The notes beneath the pieces are model-generated. The model was not told the origin of the DNA, did no database searches, and saw nothing but the letters and a program-made list of their open reading frames with translations. From Desulfobacterales bacterium (GTDB lineage Bacteria > Desulfobacterota > Desulfobacteria > Desulfobacterales > JALSRD01): DNA of 64,000 bases. The translations under genes were made by a program, and so were the position numbers. This document shows positions 3,107 to 58,158 of this stretch, one piece after another. Every line of letters begins with the position of its first letter. Position 1 is the stretch's first letter. The DNA lies in NCBI GenBank assembly GCA_026984935.1, contig JALSRD010000006.1, forward strand, positions 1 to 64,000, in the 5' to 3' direction.

Positions 3107-5095
3107 ATGAAAAGTAAATGTTTCATCGCGACCTTGCTGGCAGGGGCGGCTATCCTTGGTTTCTGTAATACAGGCGCCGGGGCGCAGTTTTCCGTGCATA
3201 AAAAACCCCTGCACGCTGCAGGGCCTGCGACACACTCCAAAGCGGGCGTAAAAGCGCCATCATCAAAACCACCCCAATTCCGGCCGGAAAAGCCCATAAG
3301 ACTTCTGCCGGACCTGGTCGTCGAAAGGATCTGGCTGAACAGGGGATACATCGCCTTTAGCGTCAAGAACGCCGGCAAGGGGGCCATTCCCGACAGGCAG
3401 CATCAAAACGGCAGGGTGAATGTTACCTACGGCGGGAAAACGCAAACCTGCGCCTTTACCCGGAAAATCAACGGAAACGCACCGGTTGACCCAAAGGGTA
3501 TTCTGAAATCCGCGGGGCGTGCTGTCACCTACACCACAGGCATCAAACCCGGATCTTCCGCTCGCACCATCAGCGTCACCGTTTTTGTGGACAATACCCG
3601 GCAGGTTCTCGAACAAAACGAGCGAAATAACACCAAAACGGTCCGGCTGGCTGTTCCTTGCCTGAGAGTTGCAGCTCAGCAAAGGGGCCAGCAGGCCCGC
3701 AAGGCAGGCGGCGGGCAGTCCGCCCTCCAGCATCCCGCCGCCCTTAACGCCGTATCCTGCAAGCCGTTGCTGTCCATCGCACGGGTGCATCTGCAGCACG
3801 GCACGGTGCATGTGAGGCTGAAAAACCGGGGCAAGACCAATTTGACAAGTACGCAGCTCCGATCGGTCCGACTGCATCTTTCCACGGGGGCAAAGGCCGG
3901 AACATGGTTTCTTGGCGGCATCGGGCACGGGCGGCAGCTGCTGCGTCCCGGCGGCCATTTTGATTTTGACACCGGCATCCGGGTGACCGCCCGGACGGAT
4001 GTCCGCGCCAGTCTGACGGGCGTACGCGGCCGTAGCCTGCGAACCGCGCGCCTTGCCCCGGCACTGCCGTTCAGAAAGCGCAACCGGGCGCCGGTGACCG
4101 GGGGAAAGCCCGCAACGCGTGATTTAAAGATGTCAAGGGTCGGATCATTACAGCACGCACCCGGCACCGGGCCAGGGGGCAATCTGCAAGTGGGTCTGCC
4201 TGATAATCTCAAACCGGCGCCGAAAAAACCGAAATGGAATGTGAAGCCGCAGACACCGCTGCAAAACCCCGCAGGAGGCCTGCAGGTCCGGACGCAACGC
4301 GATGCCTTCGGCGAGAGAAACGACACCGAGGATGCGGCCTACCCCCTCCCCTTTCGCATCAATGGAACCTATCAGGCGGCCTTTCATGACGAGCATGATG
4401 TGGACTGGTACAGCTTCAACATACCAAACCAGGGCCTGGGCAGCTGGGTGCAGATCACGGTGCAGTCCGTAAAACCCGCCCATGTGGAATTCAATGTCGA
4501 CCTTCAGGGCTGGGAAAGTGTAACGTCTACGACCCATGCCCGATTGTGGGCCGCCTTTCAAAAGGGGCTAACGGGATACCTGGGGATTGAACCTGACTAT
4601 GGTCAAATCATCGCCGCCGGGGGCCATTTGGACTACGATATCGTGCTGCAGTCCGGCGTGATCCCGGACGCGAATACAAGCATGGACGACCAAGGTTGGG
4701 AGCATCATCCCTCCGTTGAACTTGAATTGGGCCAACCCAGGCGGGCCTACATGGCCGCGGTAGGCGATGCAGATGGCCATGAAATCGGTGCCTGGGACTG
4801 GTTCATATACCCAGGCTATAAGCGCTGTAGGAATTATTGCGTGCAGCTTTCGCAAAAGGGCTTGATCATTTTGCAGAATCCCGAAGGGGGTTCGTTTCCC
4901 GATGGCGGTGAAACCCGTCATTACTGCCTGAATGATAACAGCGCCCGGGCCGATGAAACGCCGCCGCTGTGGGTTGGCATCGGTTACAAATCATTTTCAG
5001 GATCGGGCGATGTGCCCTCCCGATACAAAAACCCGTACACCATCACCTTGACCGAAGAGGGGCCGGCTTCAAACGTCATAGGCTGTGAGCCGTAA
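3107..5095 (+). CDS. Secreted CARDB-repeat protein with PPC-like C-terminal domain, paralogue 2
   Basis: 662 residues with a clear signal peptide (MKSKCFIATLLAGAAILGF, cleavage near GAGA-Q). Residues 65-181 form a CARDB-like domain (LLPDLVVERIWLN to EQNERNNTKTVRL) and 218-305 a second unit (GTVHVRLKNRGKTNL, ending PGGHFDFDTG), both nearly parallel to the upstream paralogue. The C-terminal third (about 398-662) differs from that paralogue. It contains a stretch like bacterial pre-peptidase C-terminal (PPC) domains, with DEHDVDWYSFNI, an acidic loop and Trp/Tyr that fit a jelly-roll fold. The tandem pair therefore shares N-terminal modules but has swapped C-termini. Function is unknown; an extracellular binding or structural role is inferred. 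The start has GGGAGGAT 10 nt upstream. Confidence 0.75.
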   Translation: MKSKCFIATLLAGAAILGFCNTGAGAQFSVHKKPLHAAGPATHSKAGVKAPSSKPPQFRPEKPIRLLPDLVVERIWLNRGYIAFSVKNAGKGAIPDRQHQNGRVNVTYGGKTQTCAFTRKINGNAPVDPKGILKSAGRAVTYTTGIKPGSSARTISVTVFVDNTRQVLEQNERNNTKTVRLAVPCLRVAAQQRGQQARKAGGGQSALQHPAALNAVSCKPLLSIARVHLQHGTVHVRLKNRGKTNLTSTQLRSVRLHLSTGAKAGTWFLGGIGHGRQLLRPGGHFDFDTGIRVTARTDVRASLTGVRGRSLRTARLAPALPFRKRNRAPVTGGKPATRDLKMSRVGSLQHAPGTGPGGNLQVGLPDNLKPAPKKPKWNVKPQTPLQNPAGGLQVRTQRDAFGERNDTEDAAYPLPFRINGTYQAAFHDEHDVDWYSFNIPNQGLGSWVQITVQSVKPAHVEFNVDLQGWESVTSTTHARLWAAFQKGLTGYLGIEPDYGQIIAAGGHLDYDIVLQSGVIPDANTSMDDQGWEHHPSVELELGQPRRAYMAAVGDADGHEIGAWDWFIYPGYKRCRNYCVQLSQKGLIILQNPEGGSFPDGGETRHYCLNDNSARADETPPLWVGIGYKSFSGSGDVPSRYKNPYTITLTEEGPASNVIGCEP

Positions 5096-44163: not shown

Positions 44164-44937
44164 ATGGCTCATCTTGCACTGAAAAATGTATCCAAGAGTT
44201 TTGGCGGCCTTCTGGCGGTAGACAGCCTGGACCTGGAGCTGCCGGCCGGCAAGATCCTGAGTCTGATCGGGCCCAACGGGGCCGGCAAGACGACGGTTTT
44301 CAACATGATTACGGGAGTCTATCCTCCGACACGCGGGAAAATCATTTACGACGGAAAGACCCTCAACCGCCTGAAGAGCAGCCGTATTGTCGCGCGCGGA
44401 ATCGCGCGCACCTTTCAGAACATCCGGTTGTTTAAATCCATGACAGTCCTGGAAAACGTGGAAGTCGGCATGCACTGCCGCACGAAAAGCGGTGCCGTCA
44501 GGGCACTTCTGCGGACGCCCTTTACCTTGCGTGAAGAGCGCGCCATCGAGAATAAGGCATTGGAAATACTGGAATTTTTCAGTCTGCGGCGTTACAGCAA
44601 CGAATACGCCTCCAATCTGCCCTACGGTGACCAGCGGCGTCTGGAGATTGCACGCGCCATGGCCGCCGAGCCCCGCCTGCTGCTGCTCGACGAGCCGGCC
44701 GCCGGCATGAACCCCAGTGAAACCGCCGAACTGATGCAGCTGATCCTGAAACTGCGCGATACCGGGATCACCATTTTACTGGTGGAACATGATATGAAAC
44801 TGGTCATGGGAATTTCCGAGATCGTCAGCGTGCTGGACCATGGACAAAAGATTGCCGAAGGATTGCCCGCAGAAATCCAGAAAAACGAAAAAGTGATCGA
44901 AGCCTACCTCGGCAGCGGACGCAAAAAGAAAAAGTAA
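44164..44937 (+). CDS. livG: Liv-type amino-acid ABC transporter ATP-binding protein
   Basis: 257 residues. Walker [10 protein letters not shown], the LivG-type long insert after the Walker A helix, ABC signature in [16 protein letters not shown], Walker [14 protein letters not shown]. Powers uptake through LivHM. It is the first gene of a livG-livJ-livH-livM-livF set, an unusual but complete order. Its ribosome binding site is weak. Confidence 0.93.
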
Positions 44938-45009
44938 AACCGCAGCCCGGCAGTCCATGGTGTGAGTGCCGGGGGAAACGACAACCCACCAAATGAGAAG
45001 GAGGGAAGT

Positions 45010-46134
45010 ATGAAAAAAATTGCGATTGTCATCATGTGCGTGGCGCTGATCGCCGGCTTCCACGGCATGGCTGCCGCCAAGACCCTGAAAATCGGGACCC
45101 TCAGCCCCCTCACCGGCCCCTATGCCCAGGACGGCACGGACATCAAACAGGGTGTTCTGACCGCCGTTAAAGTGTTCGGCAAGCTGCCCGGATTTGACAA
45201 AGTGGAGGTTCTTCCCGGCGACTCGGCCTGTGACGGTGGCAAGGCCACCATGGCCGCCAACAAGCTGATCAACAGCGGTGTGCAGGTAGTAGTGGGCGCC
45301 TACTGCTCATCGGCCACCGAGCCGGCCCAGATTCCGCTGATGGACGCCAAGATCATCATGATCACACCGGCCTCCACCAACGAACGGCTGACGCAGAAAG
45401 GTTACAAGTACTTTTTCCGCATGCCGCCCAGAGACGATGTGCAGGCCTGGTCCACGGTACAGTTCCTGGAGAAGAAGCTCAAGGCCAAAACCCTGGCGCT
45501 GATCGACGACAAGCAGACTTACACGGCCGGCCTGACTGCCAACATCACCAAGTTCGCCAAGAAAGACAACATGATCAAGATCGTGGCGCATGAATTCATC
45601 ACCCCCGGCGACAGTGACTTTACCGCCGTGCTCACCAAGCTCAAGCGCCTGAATCCGGACGCCATTTACATGGGCGTGTACCAGCCGGAGGGTTCCAAGA
45701 TGATCCGCCAAGCCCGCAAGCTGGACATGAAGTCGACCTTCATCAGCGAAGACGCGGTCTATCATCCCAAGTTCCTGGAAGTGGGTGGCAAGGCGGCCGA
45801 GGGGGTTTACCTGACGTTTGCCAAGGCGCCGGATTCTCCCGAGCGCCGCGCCTTTGAAAAAACCTACAAGAAGATGTGGAACGCCAAGAGCATCGGTTCC
45901 TACGCCTATTATGCCTATGATGCCGGCATGATGACGCTCGCGGCCATCAAAAAAGCAGGCACCGCGGATCCCGACCAACTGGAAAAAACCATTCGCGAAA
46001 ACACCTGGCCGGGCATCACCGGCAAGATCAAGTTTGACAGCAAGGGCGACCGCAAACTGGCACACATTATCTGGGTAGTGAAAAACAACAAGTTCGTGCC
46101 CTACTGGAATCCGATTACCGGAAAAGACCTGTAA
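45010..46134 (+). CDS. livJ: Branched-chain-amino-acid-type substrate-binding protein
   Basis: 374 residues with signal peptide MKKIAIVIMCVALIAGFHG and cleavage after AAA. Two-lobed periplasmic binding fold of the Leu/Ile/Val family (GTLSPLTGPYAQDG, YCSSATEPAQIP, TPASTNERLTQKGY). The start at 45010 has GAAGGAGGGAAG upstream. The ligand could be branched-chain or other hydrophobic amino acids, or proline/hydroxyproline given the divergent operon. Confidence 0.92.
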   Translation: MKKIAIVIMCVALIAGFHGMAAAKTLKIGTLSPLTGPYAQDGTDIKQGVLTAVKVFGKLPGFDKVEVLPGDSACDGGKATMAANKLINSGVQVVVGAYCSSATEPAQIPLMDAKIIMITPASTNERLTQKGYKYFFRMPPRDDVQAWSTVQFLEKKLKAKTLALIDDKQTYTAGLTANITKFAKKDNMIKIVAHEFITPGDSDFTAVLTKLKRLNPDAIYMGVYQPEGSKMIRQARKLDMKSTFISEDAVYHPKFLEVGGKAAEGVYLTFAKAPDSPERRAFEKTYKKMWNAKSIGSYAYYAYDAGMMTLAAIKKAGTADPDQLEKTIRENTWPGITGKIKFDSKGDRKLAHIIWVVKNNKFVPYWNPITGKDL

Positions 46135-46251
46135 CAGTAAGAAAATAGGACATCCGGCCGGTTACCATCGGCCGGATGTACATTAACGGCTGGGGAGGTT
46201 TGGCGCTGTTTTCGAAAAGCAGCGGAAGCGGTTCCACGGAGATTTTGTTGC

Positions 46252-47172
46252 ATGACTTCAACCGGTTTCATCCTGCAGCAGCTGGTAAACGCCCTGTTTC
46301 TGGGCAGCATCTATGCCCTGATTGCACTGGGGTATACGATGGTTTACGGCATCATCGAACTGATCAACTTCGCCCATGGCGAGCTTTTTACCGCCGGTGC
46401 GTTCATCGGCCTGATCGTACTTTCCGCGCTGCAGTCCGTCGGCTGGGTGGACAGCCACTTCATCCTCACCATGGTGATTGTGTTCGCCATGGCCATGGCG
46501 TATGTGGCCGTTTTGGGGGTGGCCCTCGAGCACGTGGCCTATCGGCCGCTGCGGGATGCCTCGCGCCTGGCCGCGATTCTGAGCGCCCTGGGGATGTCCA
46601 TCTTCCTGTCCAACGGCATGATGCTCAGCCAGGGCGTATCGGACCGCGCCTATCCATCCATCTTCGGCGCCGAGGGCATCACCGTCATGGGCGCCAAGAT
46701 CACCAACGGCCAGATCTTCATCATTCTGCTGGCGGTGGCCCTGATGGTCGCCCTGCAGCTCTTTGTCCACCGCACGCGCCTGGGCAAGGCCATGCGGGCC
46801 ACGGCCCAGAACCGCACCATGTCGCGCATGCTGGGCATCAACATCGACCAGACCATCCGCATCACTTTCATCATCGGGCCGGCCTTGGGGGCCGCGGCCG
46901 GTGTGATGGTGGGCCTCTACTACGGGGCCGTGCGGTTCGACATGGGGTTTATCTTCATGATCAAAGCCTTCGCCGCCGCCATCCTGGGCGGTATCGGCTC
47001 TATCCCGGGAGCCATGATCGGCGGGCTGATCATCGGCGGTGTCGAAGTGCTGTGGGCCGCTTTCCTGCCCAGCGCCTGGAAAGATGTGACCACCTTTACC
47101 CTCTTGATTCTGGTGCTGTATTTCAAACCCAGCGGACTCTGGGGACAGGGTGATGTCGAGGTGCGGGTGTAA
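46252..47172 (+). CDS. livH: Liv-type ABC transporter permease
   Basis: 306 residues, about eight membrane helices. N-terminus FILQQLVNALFLGSIYALIALG, NFAHGELFTAGAF and the C-terminal GGIGSIPGAMIGGLIIG loop are typical of LivH. GGAG lies 10 nt before the ATG. The stop overlaps livM by one base. Confidence 0.94.
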   Translation: MTSTGFILQQLVNALFLGSIYALIALGYTMVYGIIELINFAHGELFTAGAFIGLIVLSALQSVGWVDSHFILTMVIVFAMAMAYVAVLGVALEHVAYRPLRDASRLAAILSALGMSIFLSNGMMLSQGVSDRAYPSIFGAEGITVMGAKITNGQIFIILLAVALMVALQLFVHRTRLGKAMRATAQNRTMSRMLGINIDQTIRITFIIGPALGAAAGVMVGLYYGAVRFDMGFIFMIKAFAAAILGGIGSIPGAMIGGLIIGGVEVLWAAFLPSAWKDVTTFTLLILVLYFKPSGLWGQGDVEVRV

Positions 47173-48404
47173 TGATACGTCAAGAAATCAAGAAACTGGC
47201 GGTTTACTCCGTTTTTCTGGCTATTCTGATTCTTCCCATGGTGGGCTTCCGGACGACGCATTTTGAGGCCGGGCGCGCCTTTAAAGTGCTGGGCCTTTTT
47301 ATTGCCATCCTGGTGGCCAATTTTGTTGCCAAAGTCGTGCGCAGCCGGCGGGGGGAAGATCAGCTGCAGAAAGTATCGCTGGGCGACCGCATCAGCCTGC
47401 GTTTTGCCGAAATCCCTAAGATCTACACGCTCGGCCTGCTGGTGGCCGTTGCCGCCGTTTTTCCCCTGCTGGCGGACAACTATATGATTGATGTGGGCAT
47501 CACCTGCCTGATTTATGTGACCCTCGGTCTGGGGCTCAACATCGTGGTGGGGCTCTGCGGCCTGCTGGATCTGGGCTATATCGCCTTTTACGCGGTGGGG
47601 GCCTACACCTACGCACTGCTCAATCTCAGGTTCGGTGTCTCTTTCTGGGCGGCGCTGCCGGCGGGTGTGCTGATGGGCATGTTCCTGGGCTGCGTCATCG
47701 GCTATCCGACCTTGAAGATGCGCGGTGATTACCTGGCCATCGTCACCATGGGGTTCGGCGAAATCATCCGCCTGGTGCTGAACAACTGGGATAAGCTGAC
47801 CGCCGGACCCAACGGTCTGTTCGGCATGCAAAAGCCGACGCTTTATTACCCTGGATTTCATGACGGCGGGCTGCACTTGTCGGTCTACTCCATTAAAACC
47901 CTGCCGGCGTTGTACTACATGATTCTGATCATCGCCCTGCTGACACTGGTCGGGATCCGGCGCCTGAATGATTCGCGCATCGGTCGCGCCTGGGTGGCCG
48001 TGCGCGAAGACGAGACGGCCGCCGAGCTTTCGGGCGTGCCCACCACCTGGCTCAAGCTGCTGGCCTACGCGCTGGGAGCGGGATTCGCCGCCGTGGCCGG
48101 GGCGTTTTTTGCGGCCAAGCTCAGCTATGTCAACCCGAACTTCTTCATTTTCATGGAATCGTGCATCGTGCTGTGTATCGTGGTGCTGGGCGGTTCCGGA
48201 AGCATCCCCGGTGTTATCGTGGCCGGTTTTATCCTCATCGCGGTGCCGGAAATTTTCCGGGAGCTGCAGAACTACCGCATGCTGGCCTTCGGCGCCATCA
48301 TGGCCATCATGATGGTTCTGAAACCCGACGGGCTGATTCCCGCGCGCCGTCGCCGGGTGCAGATGGCAGAGCGGCGCCAGCTGGCAGGGGAGAGCAATGA
48401 ATAA
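47172..48404 (+). CDS. livM: Liv-type ABC transporter permease
   Basis: 410 residues. An N-terminal extension of about 90 residues with an extra hydrophobic segment precedes the core (LIYVTLGLGLNIVVGLCGLLDLG, GDYLAIVTMGFGEIIRL, ALGAGFAAVAGAFFA, GGSGSIPGVIVAGF). Pairs with LivH. Starts in TAATG with livH and overlaps livF by 8 nt. Confidence 0.94.
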   Translation: MIRQEIKKLAVYSVFLAILILPMVGFRTTHFEAGRAFKVLGLFIAILVANFVAKVVRSRRGEDQLQKVSLGDRISLRFAEIPKIYTLGLLVAVAAVFPLLADNYMIDVGITCLIYVTLGLGLNIVVGLCGLLDLGYIAFYAVGAYTYALLNLRFGVSFWAALPAGVLMGMFLGCVIGYPTLKMRGDYLAIVTMGFGEIIRLVLNNWDKLTAGPNGLFGMQKPTLYYPGFHDGGLHLSVYSIKTLPALYYMILIIALLTLVGIRRLNDSRIGRAWVAVREDETAAELSGVPTTWLKLLAYALGAGFAAVAGAFFAAKLSYVNPNFFIFMESCIVLCIVVLGGSGSIPGVIVAGFILIAVPEIFRELQNYRMLAFGAIMAIMMVLKPDGLIPARRRRVQMAERRQLAGESNE

Positions 48405-49116
48405 GGCGGACGTTCTGGTTCTGAAAAATGTCCACACCTACTATGGCAACATTCACGCCCTCAAGGGTATCGACCTGGCGGTGCCGAAAGGCGGCATTGC
48501 CTGCCTGATCGGCGCCAACGGGGCCGGCAAATCCACCACGCTGATGACCGTGTCCGGTGTGCTGCGTCCCAGGCAGGGTGAGGTTTTTTTCGAAGGCCGT
48601 CCGATCCACGGGACAACCCCCGAGAAGGTGGCCGCCCTGGGAATCGCCCAGAGCCCGGAAGGCCGCCAGATATTTCCCCGCATGTCGGTGCTCGAAAATC
48701 TCGAGATGGGGGCTTTCCTGCGCCGCGACCGGGAGGGCATTCAAAAGGACCTGGAGTGGGTGTACAGCCTGTTCCCGATACTGCAGGACCGCAGAAACCA
48801 GCTGGGCGGCACCCTGAGCGGCGGAGAACAGCAGATGCTGGCCATTGGACGGGCGCTGATGAGCCGGCCCTCGCTGCTGCTGCTGGACGAACCCTCGCTG
48901 GGACTGGCACCCAAAATCGTCGAAACCATTTTCGAGACGATTTTAGAGATCAACAAGCGCGGCACCTCCATTTTCCTGGTCGAGCAGAACGCCCAGATGG
49001 CGCTGAGCATCGCTGAAATCGGTTACGTCATGGAAACCGGCACCATTGTTCTGACCGATCGGGCGGATGCACTGCTGGAAAACGAGCAGGTCAAAAAAGC
49101 CTACCTCGGAGAGTGA
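48397..49116 (+). CDS. livF: Liv-type ABC transporter ATP-binding protein
   Basis: 239 residues. Walker A GANGAGKST, signature LSGGEQQMLAIGRAL, Walker B LLLLDEPSLGLAP, all standard for LivF. Completes the transporter encoded by the five genes from 44164. Confidence 0.95.
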   Translation: MNKADVLVLKNVHTYYGNIHALKGIDLAVPKGGIACLIGANGAGKSTTLMTVSGVLRPRQGEVFFEGRPIHGTTPEKVAALGIAQSPEGRQIFPRMSVLENLEMGAFLRRDREGIQKDLEWVYSLFPILQDRRNQLGGTLSGGEQQMLAIGRALMSRPSLLLLDEPSLGLAPKIVETIFETILEINKRGTSIFLVEQNAQMALSIAEIGYVMETGTIVLTDRADALLENEQVKKAYLGE

Positions 49117-49305
49117 CCGCTGCCGCAGCACCCGGCCGCTGCTTTTAGCGTACCGCACCCTTCCCCCACGACCTTTGAGGCCGGGCGGCGCCTGTTCCCG
49201 CAATTGCAAATTTCTCCTTGAAATGGTGGCGTTCAGTCCCTATCTTGGTTGCAGCCGGCGGAAAAACACGGCCGTTTGCCGTGCCGGCCCGCCAAGGAGG
49301 GGAAG

Positions 49306-49830
49306 ATGCCCGGACAGGCACTGATCATCGTCGACATGCTCAATGATTTTGTCGATCCCGCAGGAGCGCTTTACTGCGGCCCGAGCGCGCGCAAAATCAT
49401 CGGCTTTATTCAGGCCCGGCTGGCCGACTGCCGGCGCAGTGACTGTGTCGTGATTTATCTGCAGGATGCCCACGATGAAGACGACGCTGAATTCAAAAAA
49501 TTCCCCAAACACTGCCTGGCACATTCATGGGGCAGCCGGATTATCCCTGAACTTGAGCCCGAACCTCATGAAAAGGTGATTCCCAAAAAACGCTATTCCG
49601 GATTTTACGGGACCGACCTGGCCGCAACACTAGTTGCGGCGGCGGTTTCCGAAGTTGAGGTGGTGGGTGTCTGTACGTCCATTTGCGTCATGGACACGGT
49701 AGGCGGGCTGGCCAACCGCGACTACAAGGTGCGCGTGCCAGTGGCCGGTGTGGCCGATTTCGATGCCCGCATGCATACTTTTTCACTGCAGCGCATGAAA
49801 CAGATCTATGGAGCGGATATCGTTACATGA
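49306..49830 (+). CDS. pncA: Nicotinamidase-like cysteine hydrolase
   Basis: 174 residues from the ATG at 49306 (AAGGAGGGG upstream). Isochorismatase-like fold with the Asp-Lys-Cys triad: Asp10 in IIVDMLNDF, Lys in IPKKRYSGF and Cys in GVCTSICVMDT. Converts nicotinamide to nicotinate. The assignment is strengthened by the overlapping nicotinate phosphoribosyltransferase gene (ATGA), giving a two-gene NAD salvage unit. Confidence 0.87.
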   Translation: MPGQALIIVDMLNDFVDPAGALYCGPSARKIIGFIQARLADCRRSDCVVIYLQDAHDEDDAEFKKFPKHCLAHSWGSRIIPELEPEPHEKVIPKKRYSGFYGTDLAATLVAAAVSEVEVVGVCTSICVMDTVGGLANRDYKVRVPVAGVADFDARMHTFSLQRMKQIYGADIVT

Positions 49831-51152
49831 CGCCATTTAAACGCATCGGGCCGCTTTTCACCGACCTGTACGAGCTGACCATGGCCGCCGGTTACCACCG
49901 CAACGGGATCTTTGAGCCGGCCACCTTTTCACTCTTTATTCGCGATCACCACCGGCAACGGGCCTTTTATCTGGCCGCCGGCCTCGAAGACGTGCTGCAG
50001 GAGCTGGCCGACTTTCGTTTTTCTCCCGAAGAGATCGATTACCTCAGAGAAACCGGTCTGTTTCAAACGGATTTCATCGACTATATCCGCCAGCTGCATT
50101 TCAGCGGCGATGTATACGCCATGCCCGAGGGCACGGTTTTCTTTCCCGAGGAGCCGCTTGTCGAGATCGATGCGCCCATCGTGGAGGCCCAGCTGCTGGA
50201 GACCTACCTGCTCAACACCATCGGCTTCCAGACCCTGATCGCCTCCAAGGCTGCAAGATGTGTGCAGGCAGCACGCGGAAAAGCACTGATCGACTTTTCA
50301 CTGCGGCGCACCCAGGGCCAGGATGCCGGATTGAAAGTCGCGCGTAGCAGCTACATGGCGGGCTTTGCCGGCACCAGCAACGTACTGGCCGGTAAACTGT
50401 ACAAAATCCCCATCTCAGGGACCATGGCGCATTCGTTCGTGACCGCTTTTGACACCGAGCTGGCGGCTTTCGAAGCCTATGCAGATGCCTTTCCGGACAG
50501 TTGTGTTTTGCTGATCGACACCTACGACACGCTGCAGGGTGCCCGCCATGCCGTCACCGTCGGCCGCCGACTGGCGCAAAAGGGCCATTTGTTGAAGGGC
50601 GTACGCCTCGACAGCGGTGACATAGTGGCTTTGAGCCGCGAGGTGCGCCGTATTCTGGATGCCGGCGGCTTGCCGGATGTAAAAATTTTCGCCAGCAGCG
50701 GGTTCGACGAGTTTTCCATCACCCGAGCACTTGAAAAGGGTGCCTGCATCGATGCTTTTGGAGTGGGCACCAAAATGGGTGTTTCGGCGGATGCCCCCTA
50801 CCTCGATATCGTTTATAAAATGGTCCATTTCAACGGCCGCGGGGTGCGCAAGCTGAGTCCAGGCAAGGCCACACGAGCCGGGCGCAAGCAGGTCTACCGC
50901 CGTCTGGATGGCCGGGAGCGCTACCTTGAAGACACCGTCGCCCTGCGTGAAGAGAGACTCCACGGGATGCAGCCGCTCCTGGAAAAAGTGATGCAGTCCG
51001 GCCAAATCCTGCAACCCATTGCGTCGCTTGACGACCTGCGCCGGCGGGCGGCATCCAATCTGGACGCCCTGGATCCGGTGTACAAAACACCATCGGCCCA
51101 CAATGGCTATCCGGTTTCCATGAGCCGCCGCCTGCTGGAGATTCAGGGATAG
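49827..51152 (+). CDS. pncB: Nicotinate phosphoribosyltransferase
   Basis: Converts nicotinate and PRPP to nicotinate mononucleotide with ATP. 441 residues, family length. LFTDLYELTMAAGY at the N-terminus, FSLRRTQG and the phosphorylated His in GTMAHSFVTAFD are conserved, as is GVRLDSGDIVALS. Starts within the pncA stop (ATGA). Confidence 0.93.
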   Translation: MTPFKRIGPLFTDLYELTMAAGYHRNGIFEPATFSLFIRDHHRQRAFYLAAGLEDVLQELADFRFSPEEIDYLRETGLFQTDFIDYIRQLHFSGDVYAMPEGTVFFPEEPLVEIDAPIVEAQLLETYLLNTIGFQTLIASKAARCVQAARGKALIDFSLRRTQGQDAGLKVARSSYMAGFAGTSNVLAGKLYKIPISGTMAHSFVTAFDTELAAFEAYADAFPDSCVLLIDTYDTLQGARHAVTVGRRLAQKGHLLKGVRLDSGDIVALSREVRRILDAGGLPDVKIFASSGFDEFSITRALEKGACIDAFGVGTKMGVSADAPYLDIVYKMVHFNGRGVRKLSPGKATRAGRKQVYRRLDGRERYLEDTVALREERLHGMQPLLEKVMQSGQILQPIASLDDLRRRAASNLDALDPVYKTPSAHNGYPVSMSRRLLEIQG

Positions 51153-51306
51153 CAGCCAAGGCCGTTTATTTCCTTCCGATACGCCCGGCATTTCCGGCCG
51201 GCGGGATACGCTTTGCGATGGGCCGGAGCGGCGGGGCGTCAGGTCGGCGCGCACCCTTCATCCGTCAAATGCAATTGGCCACCGCACACCATAAACCGCA
51301 GCCGGT

Positions 51307-51335
51307 TTGATATTTTTGTACGATTCTGATAGAAA
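51307..51335 (+). promoter_or_regulatory. Promoter of the TPR/coiled-coil/ATPase operon
   Basis: TTGATA (51307-51312), 17 nt, TAGAAA (51330-51335), 52 nt before the TPR gene start. Confidence 0.45.
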
Positions 51336-51387
51336 ACGGCATTAGCGATGCAATGGAGTATCAATCCAGGATGGGAGGCATAAAAAC

Positions 51388-53667
51388 ATGGGCCGACCGA
51401 AAGCCATCTTTCTTTTGTTTGTCGTCGTTTCCCTTCTCGCCACCAGCTGCTCTTCGGATGAGGAGAAAAGGGTCTCATACCTCAAGAAGGGGCAGCAGTA
51501 TTTCCAGAAGGGGGAGTATAAGAGTGCAGTGCTGGAGTTCAAAAATGCCATTCAGATTGACCCGCAGTATGCGGATGCCTATGCCGGCCTGGCCGAAACT
51601 TTTCTCAAACTGGGCAATGCCCGGGGTGCTTTCCAGGCGTATTCCCAGCTGGCCAAGCTAAAACCCCAGGATGTCGATGCGCAACTCAAACTGGCCACTT
51701 TTTACATGCTGGGCAGAAAACTGGATGAGGCCAAAAAACGGGTGGACCTGGTGCTGGCCAAACAGCCGGACAACATCGAGGCCCTCTACCTGCTCGCCGG
51801 AATCCAGAGCCTGGGGAAAAACCTGTACGCATCGGCCTCGGTTTTCAGGAAGATCATCGACCTTGACAGCAAGCAGACGCGCGCCTACCTGGGACTGGCC
51901 CGGGTGCTGATGCGGCAGGGCAAGCTCCAGGAGGCCGAGAAAAACCTGAAGCAGGCCATTTCCCTGAAACCGGACGACATCCAAGCCCATCTGGCGCTGT
52001 TTGGCTTTTACGTCAGCACGAAAGCTTTTGCGAACGCTGAAAGAGAGATTCGGCAGACGATTGCGGCCCATCCTGAAAATGTCGACCTCTACCTGGTTCT
52101 GGGTAATTTTTACTTTCGCCGGAAAAAACCGGCGGCCGCTGAAAAAGCCTATCTGACGGCTGTGGATAAGGGGGCCAAGACGGTCAAACCCTATATGGTG
52201 GCAGCGGGATTTTACGAAGCCAGCCATCAAAAAGACAAGGCCCTGGCCATGTACCGCAAGGCCCTGGCGCTTGAGCCCGCAAACGTGCGGATTAAAAATA
52301 CCATTGCACGGCATTACTTCCGAAACCGTGAAATGGCGCCGGCCACCAGGATCGTCGACGAGATTCTGAAAAAGCGCCCCAATTATTTCCCGACCCGCAT
52401 GCTGAAAGGCGAAATTGCCGTTGTTCAGAAAAAATTTGACGCGGCCATCGAAATTTTCAACCAACTGATCAAGGAAGAACCCAATTCCTCCCGGGCGTAT
52501 TATTTCAAAGGGGTCGCCTACCTCGGCAAGCACCAGATACGGCTTGCCAAAAACGCCCTGGCCAAGGCCATTGAGCTCAACCCCGACCATGCCAAGGCCC
52601 GGCTGCTGATGGCCGATATTTATCTGCGGGAACATGATTTCGAACTGGCGGCCAAAGCATGCCGTAAGATCCTGGAAAAATTTCCGCATATTTACCGTGC
52701 GCAGCTGATTCTGGGCGATGCACTCATGTACCAGAAAAAAGTCGGACAGGCCGCGCAGGTGTTCGAGCGTTTGATCAAAGAAAAACCGGACAATCCCGCA
52801 GGCTATTACCGATTGGGGCGCCTGCAGCAGATCGAGAAAAAATACGATCTGGCTCTCAAGAGCTTTGAAAAAGCGCTTTCGCTGAACCCCCGGCTCATGG
52901 ATGTTTTCAGCAGCGTTGTGCTGCTGCAGGCTTCGCGTGGAAAATTCGAAGATGCCCTTGAGCGTTGCGACCGTCAGCTGGCGGTCGTCAAGAATTCATC
53001 GGCGGCCAAAGCCATTGTCTACACGCTCAAGGGGAGTCTCTTTCTGGCCAGGCACCAAAGAGATGCGGCGGAGGAAAATTTTAAAAAAGCCATCGCTGTC
53101 AATCCCAATTACCTGCGGCCTTATTACCTCCTGGCGAGAATCTACCTGGCTGAAAAGAAACAGGACCAGGCGATTTCACAGTACGCAGCGGTACTGGCCA
53201 AAAACCCGAAACAGGTGGCCCCCCATATGCTGTTGGGGACCATCTATGACATGCAGAAGCGCTTCGGCCTGTCCGAGAAGCACTACCGGCAGGCCCTGGA
53301 GCTCAATCCCGATTTTGCACCGGCGGCCAACAATCTGGCCTTTCTGCTGGCCCAGAAGAACGAGAAGATTGAAGAGGCCCTCGAGCTGGCCCAGAGGGCC
53401 AAGGAGAAACTGCCGGAAGATCCCAGCATCATGGACACCCTGGGGTGGGTCTATTACAAAAAAGGGCTATATGACAGCGCCATCGACGAATTTAAAGACA
53501 GCCTGGAGAAACTTCCTGAAAACCCGACGGTCAGGTATCATCTCGGTCTGGCGTATTACAAGAAAGGGCAAAAGGCAAAGGCCAGAACCGAGCTTCAAAA
53601 AGCACTGCACCTCGACAGAAATTTTGACGGCGCTGATGAAGCCCGCAAAATACTCGCCGCCCTGTAG
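51388..53667 (+). CDS. TPR-repeat lipoprotein (PrsT-like)
   Basis: 759 residues. Lipoprotein signal with lipobox LLATSC, so the mature protein starts CSSDEEKRV and is anchored in the envelope. The rest is a continuous array of about 20 TPR units (for example YKSAVLEFKNAIQIDPQYAD and YDLALKSFEKALSLNP). Layout and size resemble the PEP-CTERM-system TPR lipoprotein PrsT, but no exosortase lies in the window. It likely scaffolds an exopolysaccharide or secretion complex with the two following genes. Confidence 0.85.
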   Translation: MGRPKAIFLLFVVVSLLATSCSSDEEKRVSYLKKGQQYFQKGEYKSAVLEFKNAIQIDPQYADAYAGLAETFLKLGNARGAFQAYSQLAKLKPQDVDAQLKLATFYMLGRKLDEAKKRVDLVLAKQPDNIEALYLLAGIQSLGKNLYASASVFRKIIDLDSKQTRAYLGLARVLMRQGKLQEAEKNLKQAISLKPDDIQAHLALFGFYVSTKAFANAEREIRQTIAAHPENVDLYLVLGNFYFRRKKPAAAEKAYLTAVDKGAKTVKPYMVAAGFYEASHQKDKALAMYRKALALEPANVRIKNTIARHYFRNREMAPATRIVDEILKKRPNYFPTRMLKGEIAVVQKKFDAAIEIFNQLIKEEPNSSRAYYFKGVAYLGKHQIRLAKNALAKAIELNPDHAKARLLMADIYLREHDFELAAKACRKILEKFPHIYRAQLILGDALMYQKKVGQAAQVFERLIKEKPDNPAGYYRLGRLQQIEKKYDLALKSFEKALSLNPRLMDVFSSVVLLQASRGKFEDALERCDRQLAVVKNSSAAKAIVYTLKGSLFLARHQRDAAEENFKKAIAVNPNYLRPYYLLARIYLAEKKQDQAISQYAAVLAKNPKQVAPHMLLGTIYDMQKRFGLSEKHYRQALELNPDFAPAANNLAFLLAQKNEKIEEALELAQRAKEKLPEDPSIMDTLGWVYYKKGLYDSAIDEFKDSLEKLPENPTVRYHLGLAYYKKGQKAKARTELQKALHLDRNFDGADEARKILAAL

Positions 53668-53722
53668 CGCGTGAGATACCGGACGGCTGAAGCCCAGGAA
53701 AAGAGGACCGCTCGGGTGCGAG

Positions 53723-54871
53723 ATGAAATATTTGTCGTTTAAAATTCTGCTGAGCTGTATCCTGCTGCCCCCGCTGCTCTATGTTTTTTCGGTGCAGGGA
53801 CTGGAAACCTGGTTGCAGCGCAAGTATACACGCGAAGTCGAGCAGGCCTGCACCGGCGATACCGCCCCGCTGTTTAGCGGCAATCTGCGCCTGAGAGACG
53901 CGGTCAGCGCTAATATCGACCGCTTTCTGCGCAACCGGCGGCTCACGGCATGGGGCGTCCGGATCGGTGTGACGGTAACGACCGCGGGCGGGCTGCTGCT
54001 CTACCCGCCGGTCATCGAGGAGCCGCATGCGCCGCTGGTCTCAGACCCCATGAAAATCGCCGCTGAAAACTACCGCCTGATGCAGGCGGGCCTGCGGGTG
54101 AAGGTACAGGTGACACTGGCGTACAATACGCTGCTGACCAACGCCATTTTGGCCTTTTATATCCTCTTCTTCGGGCTGCTGCTCTATGTTTACTACCGCA
54201 AGGGCGCCCACCGTGTCCGGCAGGAGGCACTCGAAAAAAATCGCGAAATCGAACGCCTGAAGTCCTACGAGGAAAAGCGCAGCCGGGGGTTGAAAACCCT
54301 GCAGACCGAGCGTCAGCGGCTGTCAGCGGAACTGGAAGGGCTACGCCGGAAAGTAGAGCGGGAAAAAAACCGCGCCAGTCGCAACGAGGACCAGATGATC
54401 GAGGAAATCGTCGCGCTGGAAAAGAAAATTGCGGAAAACATTGCGCTGCAGAACACCCAACAGCGTGAAATCGAGAGCCTGACGGCAAAAATCCAGAGCT
54501 ATGAAAAGCGCCGCAAACGCGGGGGAAAACATAAAGCCAAGGCCTCCGATGCGGCGGCCAGACGCTTCAAGGCGCTCTATAAAAATCTGACCATCGGGCG
54601 GCGTGCAGTGGAAGGGTTTGCGGAACTCACCGATGATATGCAGATCAAAGCCGAGGAGATTATCCATCAGCTGAACGAGGAACCGGACAGCGTTCCCATC
54701 AAACGCAAGGTGTTTGGCAAAAAGGGCATGGGAACCTTTTTTGAGGTGCTTTTTGCCTATAACGGCCGGCTGTATTTCCGGAAAGGCAAGGACCAGGGAG
54801 TGGAAATACTGGCCATTGGCACCAAGAACTCACAGGCCCGGGATTTGGAATTTTTGCGCAACGTGCCGTGA
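53723..54871 (+). CDS. Membrane protein with long coiled coil, function unknown
   Basis: 382 residues. An N-terminal membrane segment (ILLSCILLPPLLYVFSV), a domain of about 110 residues probably in the periplasm, a second membrane segment at about 133-155 (TLLTNAILAFYILFFGLLLY), then about 120 residues of charged coiled coil (EALEKNREIERLKSYEEKR onward) and a globular C-terminus with a basic patch. No family recognised. With two membrane segments the coiled coil would be cytoplasmic, where it could meet the ATPase encoded next. The ATPase gene starts at or within 20 nt of this stop. Confidence 0.7.
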   Translation: MKYLSFKILLSCILLPPLLYVFSVQGLETWLQRKYTREVEQACTGDTAPLFSGNLRLRDAVSANIDRFLRNRRLTAWGVRIGVTVTTAGGLLLYPPVIEEPHAPLVSDPMKIAAENYRLMQAGLRVKVQVTLAYNTLLTNAILAFYILFFGLLLYVYYRKGAHRVRQEALEKNREIERLKSYEEKRSRGLKTLQTERQRLSAELEGLRRKVEREKNRASRNEDQMIEEIVALEKKIAENIALQNTQQREIESLTAKIQSYEKRRKRGGKHKAKASDAAARRFKALYKNLTIGRRAVEGFAELTDDMQIKAEEIIHQLNEEPDSVPIKRKVFGKKGMGTFFEVLFAYNGRLYFRKGKDQGVEILAIGTKNSQARDLEFLRNVP

Positions 54872-54891
54872 TCTACGGCCGGCGACATGTC

Positions 54892-56763
54892 ATGTACTGC
54901 AAATACTATCAACTCAAAGAAAAACCCTTCCAGATTACCACGGACCCCAAGTTCCTGTGGCTGGGGGAAAAGCACAAAGAAGCCTTGTCCATACTCAAGT
55001 ACGGCATCCTGGACAACAAGTGGTTTCTGCTTTTGACCGGTGATGTGGGAACCGGCAAAACCACCCTGATCAATGCCCTTTTGAGAAGCCTCGATGAACG
55101 GGTGATCGTGGCCGCAGTCCCCGATCCCGGTCTGGAAGAACTCGACCTGTTCAATTTCATCGCCGATGCTTTTCATATGGACAGGATCTTTTCCTCCAAG
55201 GGCGAGTTCCTGATCCATTTCAAGCGTTTCCTGAATGCCGCCCATGACAGCCATAAAAAAGTCCTGCTGATCATCGACGAGGCCCAACAGCTCACGCAGC
55301 AGCGTTTGGAAACCATTCGCCTGCTCTCCAACATTGAAAGACAAGAAACCAAGCTGATCAACATCTTTTTTGTCGGTCAGAACGAGTTTAACGACATTCT
55401 GCGCCGTACGGAAAACCGGGCGCTGCGCCAGCGGATTACCATCAACTACAACATCGCGCCTCTCGCGCCAGCGGAAACGGCGGCCTATATTGCTCACCGG
55501 CTGAAAGTCGCCCAGGCGGCAAAATCCATGTTTACCCCCGAAGCCGTTCGCCGCATTGCCATCCATTCCGGGGGGTATCCCCGCCTGATTAACGTCCTGT
55601 GTGACTATGCGCTGGTAACCGGATACGTCAAGGGCATCCATCAGATTGGCCCCGACATTATATCCGAATGTGCCCGGGAGCTGAAAATTCCGGGTCGCAG
55701 TCCGGCTCCACAACAAGCACTCCCGGACGCACCTGCGCCGACTCCGCGTCCACAATCCGGCCCGTCGCCTTCGGGCCGACGGCCGCCGGCATCCGCCCCG
55801 GTGCCGTCTGCTGCCGCACATGCAGCCGTGATGCCTGCAAAAGCGGGGCACCCCGCCTGGCTGTGGGGCCTGCTGGGCATCTTGCTGGCCGCCGGCGTAC
55901 TCCTTATGGGATATTATCTGGGATGGCGCCTGCCAAACCAAAAAGCGCCGATGATTGCCAAGGCCCCTGCCGTACGGACCCCAAAAACCGCTGCAACCGG
56001 CGAAATGCAGGTGTCCACGCAGCTGCCCGAAGTCCATCCGCCCGTGGCGGCGGTTCCTGCAGCCCAGCGGGGCGCTGCCGCCACCCATCTGGAAGGCAGC
56101 CAGGCGACGGGCGGCGGCGGACGTGAGAGCGGGCAAACGCCTTCTGCGAACAGAGAAAATCCGGCCGGCAGTACAAGCGCTGGCCGGCGGGCGGCCACTT
56201 CTGCTGAGCCCGCCGGTTCGAATGCAGCGGCGGGCATGCCAGGGGGGCAGGAAATTTCACGCAACCAGCCTGCTGACAGCGGCGGGCAGCGCAGTGCGCC
56301 GCCCCGGGCGCAATCTGCAACGCCCGTGGGCCCGGTTTTACACAGGGATGCTGCTCTTGCGGTGGACACGGATCTGGAAAAGCGTATTCAGGAACTTGCG
56401 CGCAGAAAAAAAATGGTCGTGTACTTTGGATACGACTCCAACGCGATGAAAGACACGACGCTCAGATCGCTGGATACGCTTTCGGCGTTTATGCAGCGCT
56501 ACCCGCGGGCAGAGATCACCATCAGGGGCTACACGGATTCATCAGGGGTATACAGTTACAATCAAAAGCTGTCTGAATTCAGGGCCAACATGGTCAAAAG
56601 CTATCTGGTGGGCAAGGGCACAGATCCAGCCAGGATCAAAACCCGCGGCCTCGGGCCGGCAAATCCGGTGCAGTCCAATCAGTCCGAAAAAACCCGCAGA
56701 TTCAACCGCCGTGTAGAAATCGAGATTTTTTTTACCCCCCGCCACAAGGCGACAGCCGGGTGA
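54892..56763 (+). CDS. ExeA-like AAA ATPase fused to periplasmic OmpA domain
   Basis: 623 residues from ATG 54892; a GTG at 54868 overlapping the previous stop is possible. Cytoplasmic ATPase about 1-270 begins YCKYYQLKEKPFQITTDP, with Walker A GDVGTGKTT and Walker B VLLIIDEAQQ, as in ExeA and exosortase-associated ATPases. A Pro/Ala linker precedes one membrane helix (about 321-344, LWGLLGILLAAGVLLMGYYL). A 150-residue Ala/Pro/Ser linker leads to a C-terminal OmpA-type peptidoglycan-binding domain (about 503-616, with RGYTDSSG and NRRVEIE). ExeA proteins carry a different wall-binding domain, so this fusion is uncommon. Confidence 0.85.
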   Translation: MYCKYYQLKEKPFQITTDPKFLWLGEKHKEALSILKYGILDNKWFLLLTGDVGTGKTTLINALLRSLDERVIVAAVPDPGLEELDLFNFIADAFHMDRIFSSKGEFLIHFKRFLNAAHDSHKKVLLIIDEAQQLTQQRLETIRLLSNIERQETKLINIFFVGQNEFNDILRRTENRALRQRITINYNIAPLAPAETAAYIAHRLKVAQAAKSMFTPEAVRRIAIHSGGYPRLINVLCDYALVTGYVKGIHQIGPDIISECARELKIPGRSPAPQQALPDAPAPTPRPQSGPSPSGRRPPASAPVPSAAAHAAVMPAKAGHPAWLWGLLGILLAAGVLLMGYYLGWRLPNQKAPMIAKAPAVRTPKTAATGEMQVSTQLPEVHPPVAAVPAAQRGAAATHLEGSQATGGGGRESGQTPSANRENPAGSTSAGRRAATSAEPAGSNAAAGMPGGQEISRNQPADSGGQRSAPPRAQSATPVGPVLHRDAALAVDTDLEKRIQELARRKKMVVYFGYDSNAMKDTTLRSLDTLSAFMQRYPRAEITIRGYTDSSGVYSYNQKLSEFRANMVKSYLVGKGTDPARIKTRGLGPANPVQSNQSEKTRRFNRRVEIEIFFTPRHKATAG

Positions 56764-56803
56764 GGCAACCGGCCGCGTCTCCTGCGGCAGCATCTTGCAG
56801 CGG

Positions 56804-57352
56804 TTAGGCCGCGACGCTTTCCTGTACCAGCGCCATGCCCAGCTTGAGCGCCTTGCGATTGATGTCGAGAAATCCGGAGGGGATGCGCCGGGTCAGCACC
56901 TTTTCGACGGATGTTTCCGAGATGAGTTCCGTCAGGCCCAGCACCGCGCCCAGCATACAGATGTTAAAAACGATCGGCTTGCCGATCTCTTCCAGTACAC
57001 GGACGTACATGGGGAGTTCAATCTGGCGGGCATCGACTTTACGTTCGGTTTTCACGAAACGGGTGTCGGTGAGCAGCAGCCCTCCCGGACGGATGATGGG
57101 ATAGAATTTGTTGTAGGCGGTCTGGGTCAGGCAGATCAGCACGTTGGGCTGAAAAACCTTGGGAAAGTATATTTCGGAGTCGGAGATAATGACATCCGAA
57201 CGTGTCGCCCCGCCGCGGGCTTCGGGGCCGTATGTCTGCGACTGTACGGCGTTCAGGTTTTCATACAGCACAGCGGCCTCGGCCAGGATAATGGAGGCGG
57301 TGATGACTCCCTGACCGCCGGAGCCCGAGAATACGATTCGGCACCGTTCCAT
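56804..57352 (-). CDS. korC: 2-oxoacid:ferredoxin oxidoreductase gamma subunit
   Basis: 182 residues. GSGGQGVITASIILAEAA and QTYGPEARGGATRSDVIIS are diagnostic of the gamma subunit. Last gene of korDABC; the start lies 2 nt after the korB stop. The complex interconverts a 2-oxoacid (2-oxoglutarate likely) with acyl-CoA and CO2, using ferredoxin. Confidence 0.93.
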   Translation of the reverse strand: MERCRIVFSGSGGQGVITASIILAEAAVLYENLNAVQSQTYGPEARGGATRSDVIISDSEIYFPKVFQPNVLICLTQTAYNKFYPIIRPGGLLLTDTRFVKTERKVDARQIELPMYVRVLEEIGKPIVFNICMLGAVLGLTELISETSVEKVLTRRIPSGFLDINRKALKLGMALVQESVAA

Positions 57353-57354
57353 GG

Positions 57355-58158
57355 CTAATTCCCTTTCATCGCTTTTTCGATGACGTCGTCGTACGCGCTG
57401 CAGTATTCCGTCGTCTCCTTCTGTACGAAGATGCCGCGTTCGATCAGTTCAGGATGTTCACGCTTGGCTTTGGAGCCGATGGGCGTGGTGATTTTTTTAA
57501 AGCGCTCCACCATGTCCACGGCGCTTCCCAGGCGGTTTTTGCGCCCGAAATAGGTGGGGCACTGGGACATGACCTCCACCACCGAAAACCCTTCGTGGAG
57601 GATGGCCGCCTTGAGCAGATCGGTGATCTGGCGCGCATGATAGGTGGTCGTACGGGCCACAAAGGTTGCGCCCGCCGCCGAGGCCAGATCCACCACGTCG
57701 AAGTCGCTGTCGATGTTGCTGTAAGGCGCGGTGGTGGCCAGGATGCCCTGACCTGAGAGCGGTGAATACTGGCCGCCGGTCATGCCGTAGATGCGGTTGT
57801 TCATAACCACGGCCGTCAAATCGATGTTGCGCCGGGCGGCGTGGATAAAATGGTTGCCGCCGATGGCCAGGGCATCCCCGTCGCCCATGGGGACGATCAC
57901 GTTGAGCTCCGGGCGGCTCAGCTTGACGCCGGTGGCAAAGGCCAGCGCGCGCCCGTGCAGCGTGTGCAGGCTGTGAAAATCAACATAGCCGGATATGCGC
58001 GAAGAGCAGCCGATGCCGGATACCATCACGATTTCGTTTTTACTCAGGCCCAGTGCGTCGATGGCCCGCAGCATGCTGTTCAAGACGATGCCGTGTCCAC
58101 AGCCGGGGCACCACATGTGCGGGAAAAACCGCTCCCTGATGTAATCCTTGACCGCCAT
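57355..58158 (-). CDS. korB: 2-oxoacid:ferredoxin oxidoreductase beta subunit (TPP-binding)
   Basis: 267 residues. WCPGCGHGIV near the N-terminus, ISGIG-like SGIGCSSR, and the TPP/Mg motif GDGDALAIGGNHFIHAARRN with VMNNRIYGMTGGQ. Two nt after korA. The substrate within the KGOR/VOR/PFOR group cannot be set from sequence alone; the gene set without a fused format resembles 2-oxoglutarate oxidoreductase. Confidence 0.93.
   Translation of the reverse strand: MAVKDYIRERFFPHMWCPGCGHGIVLNSMLRAIDALGLSKNEIVMVSGIGCSSRISGYVDFHSLHTLHGRALAFATGVKLSRPELNVIVPMGDGDALAIGGNHFIHAARRNIDLTAVVMNNRIYGMTGGQYSPLSGQGILATTAPYSNIDSDFDVVDLASAAGATFVARTTTYHARQITDLLKAAILHEGFSVVEVMSQCPTYFGRKNRLGSAVDMVERFKKITTPIGSKAKREHPELIERGIFVQKETTEYCSAYDDVIEKAMKGN

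What the first reader, a model, noticed from the sequence alone, without database searches (positions are those of the whole stretch)
51388..56763. Possible trans-envelope complex: TPR lipoprotein, coiled-coil membrane protein, ATPase-OmpA fusion
Three consecutive genes encode an envelope-anchored TPR scaffold, an inner-membrane protein with a predicted cytoplasmic coiled coil, and an ExeA-type ATPase joined by a membrane helix to a peptidoglycan-binding OmpA domain. Together they could link cytoplasmic ATP hydrolysis to cell-wall-anchored assembly of a secretion or polysaccharide export device. No exosortase or secretin is in the window.
Basis: partly seen in the sequence, partly recalled or inferred. 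Interest (0 to 1): 0.6.

Follow-up and report, generated by a model that had tools for sequence, protein, structure and literature searches.

The report
Exosortase-linked envelope module with RelE-fold protein
Three neighbouring genes in a Desulfobacterales-type bacterium encode an outer-membrane scaffold, a new inner-membrane protein and a cell-wall-anchored ATPase that travel with the machinery for surface proteins and slime sugars, and the new protein ends in a domain predicted to be shaped like the RNA-cutting RelE toxin.

Summary
The three ORFs are real and at the stated place. Gene 1 passes the NCBIfam PrsT cut-off (exosortase/PEP-CTERM TPR lipoprotein). Gene 3 is a TIGR03015/ExeA-like AAA ATPase (below cut-off) joined by one membrane helix to an OmpA domain. 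Gene 2 matches no informative Pfam or NCBIfam family, yet is found in 114 of 291 genomes of the order.

PrsT lies directly upstream of gene 2 in 50 of 66 loci examined; the ATPase lies directly downstream in at least 27 of 114 genomes. Gene 2 co-occurs with exosortase (72/114 against 47/177 genomes) and in several genomes lies in or beside exosortase/EPS/PEP-CTERM clusters. The window's own genome has an exosortase, PEP-CTERM proteins and two secretins on other contigs.

New point: the best-conserved part of gene 2 is its C-terminal 97 residues, predicted (pLDDT 90) to have the RelE/YoeB toxin fold, at the tip of a long cytoplasmic coiled coil. Thirteen of its residues are invariant in 72 proteins, including R349, which aligns with RelE R61.

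The trans-envelope idea is supported by context. Complex formation, RNase activity and a secretion role are untested.

The parts
51388..53667 (+). Gene 1: PrsT-type TPR lipoprotein, 759 aa
   Evidence: TIGR02917 406.5 bits, cut-off 312.2; TPR Pfam models
51388..51450 (+). Predicted lipoprotein signal ending at Cys21 (LLATSC)
   Evidence: Sequence; lipobox-like motif also in homologues
53723..54871 (+). Gene 2: inner-membrane protein with periplasmic domain, coiled coil and RelE-fold tip, 382 aa
   Evidence: Conserved family of 114/291 genomes; model with pLDDT 82
53801..54127 (+). Gene 2 residues 27-135: predicted periplasmic domain between two membrane helices
   Evidence: Hydropathy, model secondary structure
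54215..54574 (+). Gene 2 residues 165-284: coiled coil
   Evidence: Hydrophobic period 3.5-3.55 over 72 proteins; one helix 137-285 in the model
54578..54868 (+). Gene 2 residues 286-382: predicted RelE/ParE-fold domain
   Evidence: Domain model pLDDT 90, pTM 0.83; Foldseek and VIA-align matches; conservation
54892..56763 (+). Gene 3: AAA ATPase - membrane helix - OmpA fusion, 623 aa from ATG (GTG possible at 54868)
   Evidence: TIGR03015 250.7 bits; PF13401 and PF00691; start judged from homologues
54892..55692 (+). Gene 3 AAA/TIGR03015-like ATPase domain
55855..55911 (+). Gene 3 membrane helix
   Evidence: Hydropathy 2.06 at residues 322-340
56422..56709 (+). Gene 3 OmpA domain (PF00691)
   Evidence: E 1.9e-17

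Best explanation
The trio is a lineage-specific envelope module of the exosortase/PEP-CTERM/exopolysaccharide system of Desulfobacterales and relatives. PrsT is a lipid-anchored TPR scaffold in the periplasm. Gene 2 spans the inner membrane, with a periplasmic domain and a long cytoplasmic coiled coil tipped by a RelE-fold domain. The ATPase is held to peptidoglycan by its OmpA domain, as ExeA is by its own peptidoglycan-binding domain, and uses ATP to organise the site where surface proteins or polysaccharide are handled. Shown: gene content, conserved order, genomic association. Predicted: topology and RelE fold. Inferred: that the proteins form one complex, that gene 2 contacts PrsT, and that the ATPase remodels an assembly site.
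For: PrsT is itself an exosortase-system family (PMC1569441). PrsT is directly upstream of gene 2 in 50 of 66 loci and an ATPase directly downstream in 27 (24 called OmpA-fused there, plus L110 by Pfam); 10 of 12 independently fetched named loci have PrsT directly upstream. Gene 2 and exosortase: 72/114 vs 47/177 genomes, odds ratio 4.7, p 7e-10; gene 2 and the ATPase family: odds ratio 4.2, p 1e-8. In 6 of 10 single-contig genomes gene 2 and an exosortase lie within 120 kb (simulated p 2e-5). L062 holds exosortase, PrsT, gene 2, TIGR03790 and PEP-CTERM genes within about 12 kb; L058-L060 hold exosortase, EpsI, EPS export, tyrosine kinase, chain-length, ATPase-OmpA and gene 2 in one run. The own genome has an exosortase and PEP-CTERM proteins.
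Against: The association statistics are not corrected for relatedness. Forty-two gene-2 genomes have no exosortase hit, including the sister species G053 that has all three genes. In the window's genome the trio is not next to the exosortase. The ATPase is adjacent in only about a quarter of gene-2 genomes, and a tree needs about 11 changes for adjacency. There is no interaction evidence.
Confidence: 0.6

Rival explanations
1. Gene 2 is a membrane-tethered RelE-type RNase or ribosome-binding regulator: an envelope signal passes down the coiled coil and switches the RelE-like domain, which acts on mRNA or ribosomes and so tunes synthesis of surface components.
For: RelE-family fold. The C-terminal domain is the most conserved part (65% mean column identity against 44-45%), net charge about +4 on average, with Y286, K287, E311, E312, R328, K329, E341, G348, R349, Y351, G366, K368 and Q371 invariant in 72 proteins. 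The hhalign register puts R349 opposite the conserved YR of RelE-type toxins and IGTKN opposite IGKRN; RelE R61 and R81 matter for cleavage (PMC2807027).
Against: Sequence match to RelE profiles is insignificant (hhalign probability 0.2%; no ParE/RelE hit). RelE Y87 falls at D374 in a hand alignment. A shared fold does not show a function. No antitoxin-like partner was seen, though none was searched for systematically.
Confidence: 0.18
2. The ATPase-OmpA with gene 2 is an ExeAB-like assembly factor for a secretin (type II secretion or pilus) rather than part of the exosortase/EPS system.
For: ExeA-type ATPase with membrane helix and peptidoglycan-binding type domain; ExeAB with peptidoglycan assembles secretin ExeD (PMC4098917). 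PrsT-gene 2 is divergent from a GspA-GspB pair in L014, L016 and L017. The genome has two secretins.
Against: The genome already has a separate GspA-like ATPase beside a GspB-like gene. No secretin gene was noticed in the loci read, though not searched by HMM. Neighbourhoods point to EPS/exosortase genes.
Confidence: 0.12
3. PrsT-gene 2 is a stable gene pair of unrelated envelope function (for example a general stress or cell-wall scaffold), and its link with exosortase merely reflects lineages rich in both.
For: 42 of 114 genomes with gene 2 lack an exosortase hit; tests ignore relatedness.
Against: Direct clustering with exosortase, EPS and PEP-CTERM genes in several lineages.
Confidence: 0.2

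Closest known systems
XrtA/PEP-CTERM (exosortase) system with PrsT (TIGR02917) and its associated ATPase (TIGR03015)
   Same: PrsT over cut-off; TIGR03015-like ATPase; neighbouring EPS, EpsI, PEP-CTERM and exosortase genes in relatives
   Different: ATPase below the family cut-off and fused to OmpA; extra gene 2; no PrsK over the threshold in this genome; exosortase on another contig
GspA-GspB / ExeA-ExeB secretin assembly factors
   Same: Cytoplasmic AAA ATPase, single membrane helix, periplasmic peptidoglycan-binding type domain
   Different: OmpA instead of PG_binding_1; partner is gene 2, not GspB; a separate GspA/GspB-like pair exists in the genome
RelE/YoeB/HigB/ParE toxin superfamily
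   Same: Predicted fold of gene 2 residues 286-382; R349 and K368 at or near RelE R61 and R81 positions
   Different: C-terminal part of a membrane coiled-coil protein; no significant sequence match; no antitoxin seen; RelE Y87 not kept

Membership tests
PrsT (TIGR02917) | Model score over the curated cut-off | tested here: met
   406.5 bits, cut-off 312.2
PrsT (TIGR02917) | TPR protein with lipoprotein signal | tested here: met
   TPR Pfam hits; signal with Cys21, LLATSC, a slightly unusual lipobox
PrsK/PrsR/PrsT regulatory set (PMC1569441) | PrsK (TIGR02916) in the same genome | tested here: not met
   No match at E <= 1e-80 in the own genome; 27 of 291 genomes have one. PrsR was not searched. 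So not filed as that regulatory set
XrtA-associated ATPase (TIGR03015) | Model score over the curated cut-off | tested here: not met
   250.7 bits, cut-off 324.5; a relative, not filed as a member
GspA/ExeA | AAA ATPase with C-terminal PG_binding_1 domain | tested here: not met
   OmpA PF00691 instead; GspA of L016 does have PF01471
GspA/ExeA | Partner GspB/ExeB encoded alongside | tested here: not met
   Neighbour is gene 2; GspB-like gene lies next to the C78 ATPase
RelE/ParE superfamily (gene 2, residues 286-382) | RelE-type fold | tested here: met
   On predicted models only: Foldseek probability 1.00, TM to target up to 0.72; VIA Z 9.3-9.9
RelE/ParE superfamily (gene 2, residues 286-382) | Sequence profile match | tested here: not met
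   No ParE/RelE Pfam hit; one of 12 members has Gp49 PF05973 at E 0.08; hhalign probability 0.2%. So filed as fold-like, not as a member
RelE/ParE superfamily (gene 2, residues 286-382) | Catalytic residues (RelE R61, R81, Y87) | tested here: inconclusive
   R349 by hhalign register and K368 by hand alignment, both invariant, at R61 and R81; Y87 falls at D374; no coordinates to check
RelE/ParE superfamily (gene 2, residues 286-382) | RNase activity or ribosome binding | not testable with these tools
   Needs biochemistry
Exosortase/PEP-CTERM system | Exosortase and PEP-CTERM substrates in the same genome | tested here: met
   PF09721 at 2.7e-44; five TIGR02595 hits, four clear
Exosortase/PEP-CTERM system | Genes clustered with exosortase/EPS genes | tested here: inconclusive
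   Different contigs in this draft genome (C6 and the end of C35); clustered in L058-L060 and L062

The most novel reading that the evidence does not exclude
Gene 2 is an envelope-sensing, membrane-anchored RelE-type ribonuclease or ribosome-binding switch that couples the state of the surface-protein/exopolysaccharide machinery to translation: a toxin fold domesticated in a housekeeping envelope system.
Probability: 0.18. Interest if true: 0.85.

Novelty: new variant of a known kind. Interest (0 to 1): 0.55.

Why it matters
The roles of the TPR lipoprotein and the ATPase in exosortase systems are not settled in the sources read here. A conserved third partner, plus an ATPase carrying a peptidoglycan-binding type domain, gives a concrete and testable picture of an envelope machine. 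If the RelE-like domain is active, it would be a toxin fold fixed in one architecture and wired to the cell surface instead of to an antitoxin.

Tried and rejected
Gene 2 as an SMC-type protein: the weak NCBIfam hits (E 1e-4 to 2e-3) lie mostly in the coil, and PDB sequence hits are generic coiled coils. Profile comparison with seven RelE/ParE proteins was insignificant, though in the expected register. The domain was not found outside gene 2: the clear hits in 165 order genomes and 247 phylum genomes lie in frames of gene-2 size; one borderline hit (G117, E 0.0045) was not followed. Gene 2 as a replacement that excludes PrsK: no signal (10 of 27 PrsK genomes have gene 2, p 1). Promoter and terminator scans were near chance. 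The periplasmic domain of gene 2 was barely tested for fold. Literature searches on exosortase with Desulfobacter, and with ATPase plus TPR, gave nothing useful; a search on RelE fold with membrane gave nothing on point.

Full report
Observation. Gene 1 (759 aa) is a TPR lipoprotein that passes the NCBIfam cut-off for PrsT, the TPR protein of exosortase/PEP-CTERM systems (406.5 bits against 312.2). Gene 2 (382 aa) has no Pfam match and only weak coiled-coil NCBIfam matches. Gene 3 is an AAA ATPase related to TIGR03015 (250.7 bits, below the 324.5 cut-off) with one membrane helix and a C-terminal OmpA domain. The ATG at 54892 fits its homologues better than the GTG at 54868.

Genome context. 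The genome is a 3.9-Mb draft in 112 contigs, 99% complete. Named loci with gene 2 are mostly Desulfobacterales. The genome holds one exosortase at the end of contig C35 (over the cut-off of the general exosortase model TIGR02602, best single model XrtC but below its cut-off), five PEP-CTERM hits, four of them clear, and two secretins: one among type II secretion genes and one beside a PilM-like gene, as read from the ORFs. Two other ATPases of this kind exist: one on C78 next to a GspB-like gene and one on C32 with no peptidoglycan-binding domain detected.

Conservation. Twelve named loci encode gene 2; PrsT is directly upstream in ten and on the opposite strand nearby in two. In 291 genomes of the order, 114 have gene 2; outside the order it is rare (6 genomes of other orders in a draw of 395 from the phylum). 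Among 66 loci examined (one contig is present twice, as L011 and L130), PrsT is directly upstream on the same strand in 50, an ATPase is directly downstream in 27, and all three stand in order in 12. Many of these loci were picked because the ATPase was adjacent, so the fairer figure is at least 27 of 114 genomes, counted by hand plus L110. The ATPase-TM-OmpA fusion is found in 25 proteins by one method and in L110 by Pfam; one locus (L106) has a PilZ domain and no membrane helix instead. On a tree of 72 gene-2 proteins, ATPase adjacency needs 11 changes against 21.9 in shuffles: inherited, but repeatedly lost or gained.

Link to exosortase and EPS. Gene 2 and exosortase co-occur (72 of 114 against 47 of 177; p 7e-10), as do gene 2 and the ATPase family (78 of 114 against 60 of 177; p 1e-8); neither test corrects for relatedness. 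In ten single-contig genomes, six have gene 2 within about 110 kb of an exosortase (simulated p 2e-5 for a 120-kb limit; distances taken by hand). L058-L060 hold exosortase, EpsI, an outer-membrane protein, polysaccharide export, tyrosine kinase, chain-length protein, a CAAX-type protease, ATPase-OmpA and gene 2 in one run; L062 has exosortase, PrsT, gene 2, a TIGR03790 protein and three PEP-CTERM candidates within about 12 kb. Against an obligate link: 42 gene-2 genomes lack an exosortase hit, among them the sister species G053, which has all three genes.

Gene 2. Two membrane helices flank a domain of about 110 residues; then comes one long helix with a heptad-like period (3.5-3.55). The last 97 residues are predicted as strand-helix-helix-strands-helix with pLDDT 90 and pTM 0.83. 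Foldseek and VIA-align put RelE, YoeB, YafQ, HigB and ParE toxins at the top with both the full and the domain model. Z 9.9 at rmsd 2.0 over 78 residues is above, but not far above, the 7-8 that the tool calls common; what persuades is that nearly every top row is of this one superfamily in both programs. The domain is the best-conserved part, with thirteen residues invariant in 72 proteins. By the hhalign register R349 lies opposite the conserved YR of RelE-type toxins, that is RelE R61; K368 lies at R81 by hand alignment. RelE R61, R81 and Y87 matter for cleavage (PMC2807027), and Y87 falls at D374. The profile comparison itself is not significant. So the fold is likely and the activity open. 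The domain was not found in any other architecture.

Mechanism. Best reading: PrsT is a periplasmic scaffold, gene 2 an inner-membrane partner reaching into the cytoplasm, and the ATPase an ExeA-like organiser held to peptidoglycan; together they serve the site where EPS and PEP-CTERM proteins are handled. ExeA, with ExeB and peptidoglycan, is needed to assemble the ExeD secretin (PMC4098917); this is the analogy, not a membership claim. Complex formation, the direction of signalling and the step that uses ATP are inferred.

Novelty. The kind of system is known (PMC1569441). The ATPase-OmpA form and gene 2 with its RelE-like tip are not named in the libraries searched, and no paper describing them turned up in a limited search. 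I rate it a new variant of a known kind.

Noticed in passing
L106:4187-5530: The ATPase next to gene 2 carries a PilZ (c-di-GMP-binding type) domain and no membrane helix in place of TM-OmpA.
   Followed up: partly
L058, L060, L061, L062, L068, L108, L115, L116, L128: TIGR03790 family proteins of unknown function recur in the neighbourhood of gene 2.
   Followed up: no
L014, L016, L017: PrsT-gene 2 is transcribed away from a GspA-GspB pair.
   Followed up: partly
L023:4940-6790 (contig C32 of the own genome): A third ATPase of the family, with a Pro/Ala-rich tail and no peptidoglycan-binding domain found.
   Followed up: partly
L065; window 44164-58158: The sister genome G053 keeps the trio between branched-chain amino-acid transport type genes and a 2-oxoacid oxidoreductase type gene, as in the window.
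   Followed up: partly
window 692-2833 and 3107-5095: Two long secreted-looking proteins share an 'IRLLPDLVV' motif and may be paralogous surface proteins.
   Followed up: no
L021:5639-7888: A second, diverged TPR protein sits between the PrsT gene and gene 2.
   Followed up: no
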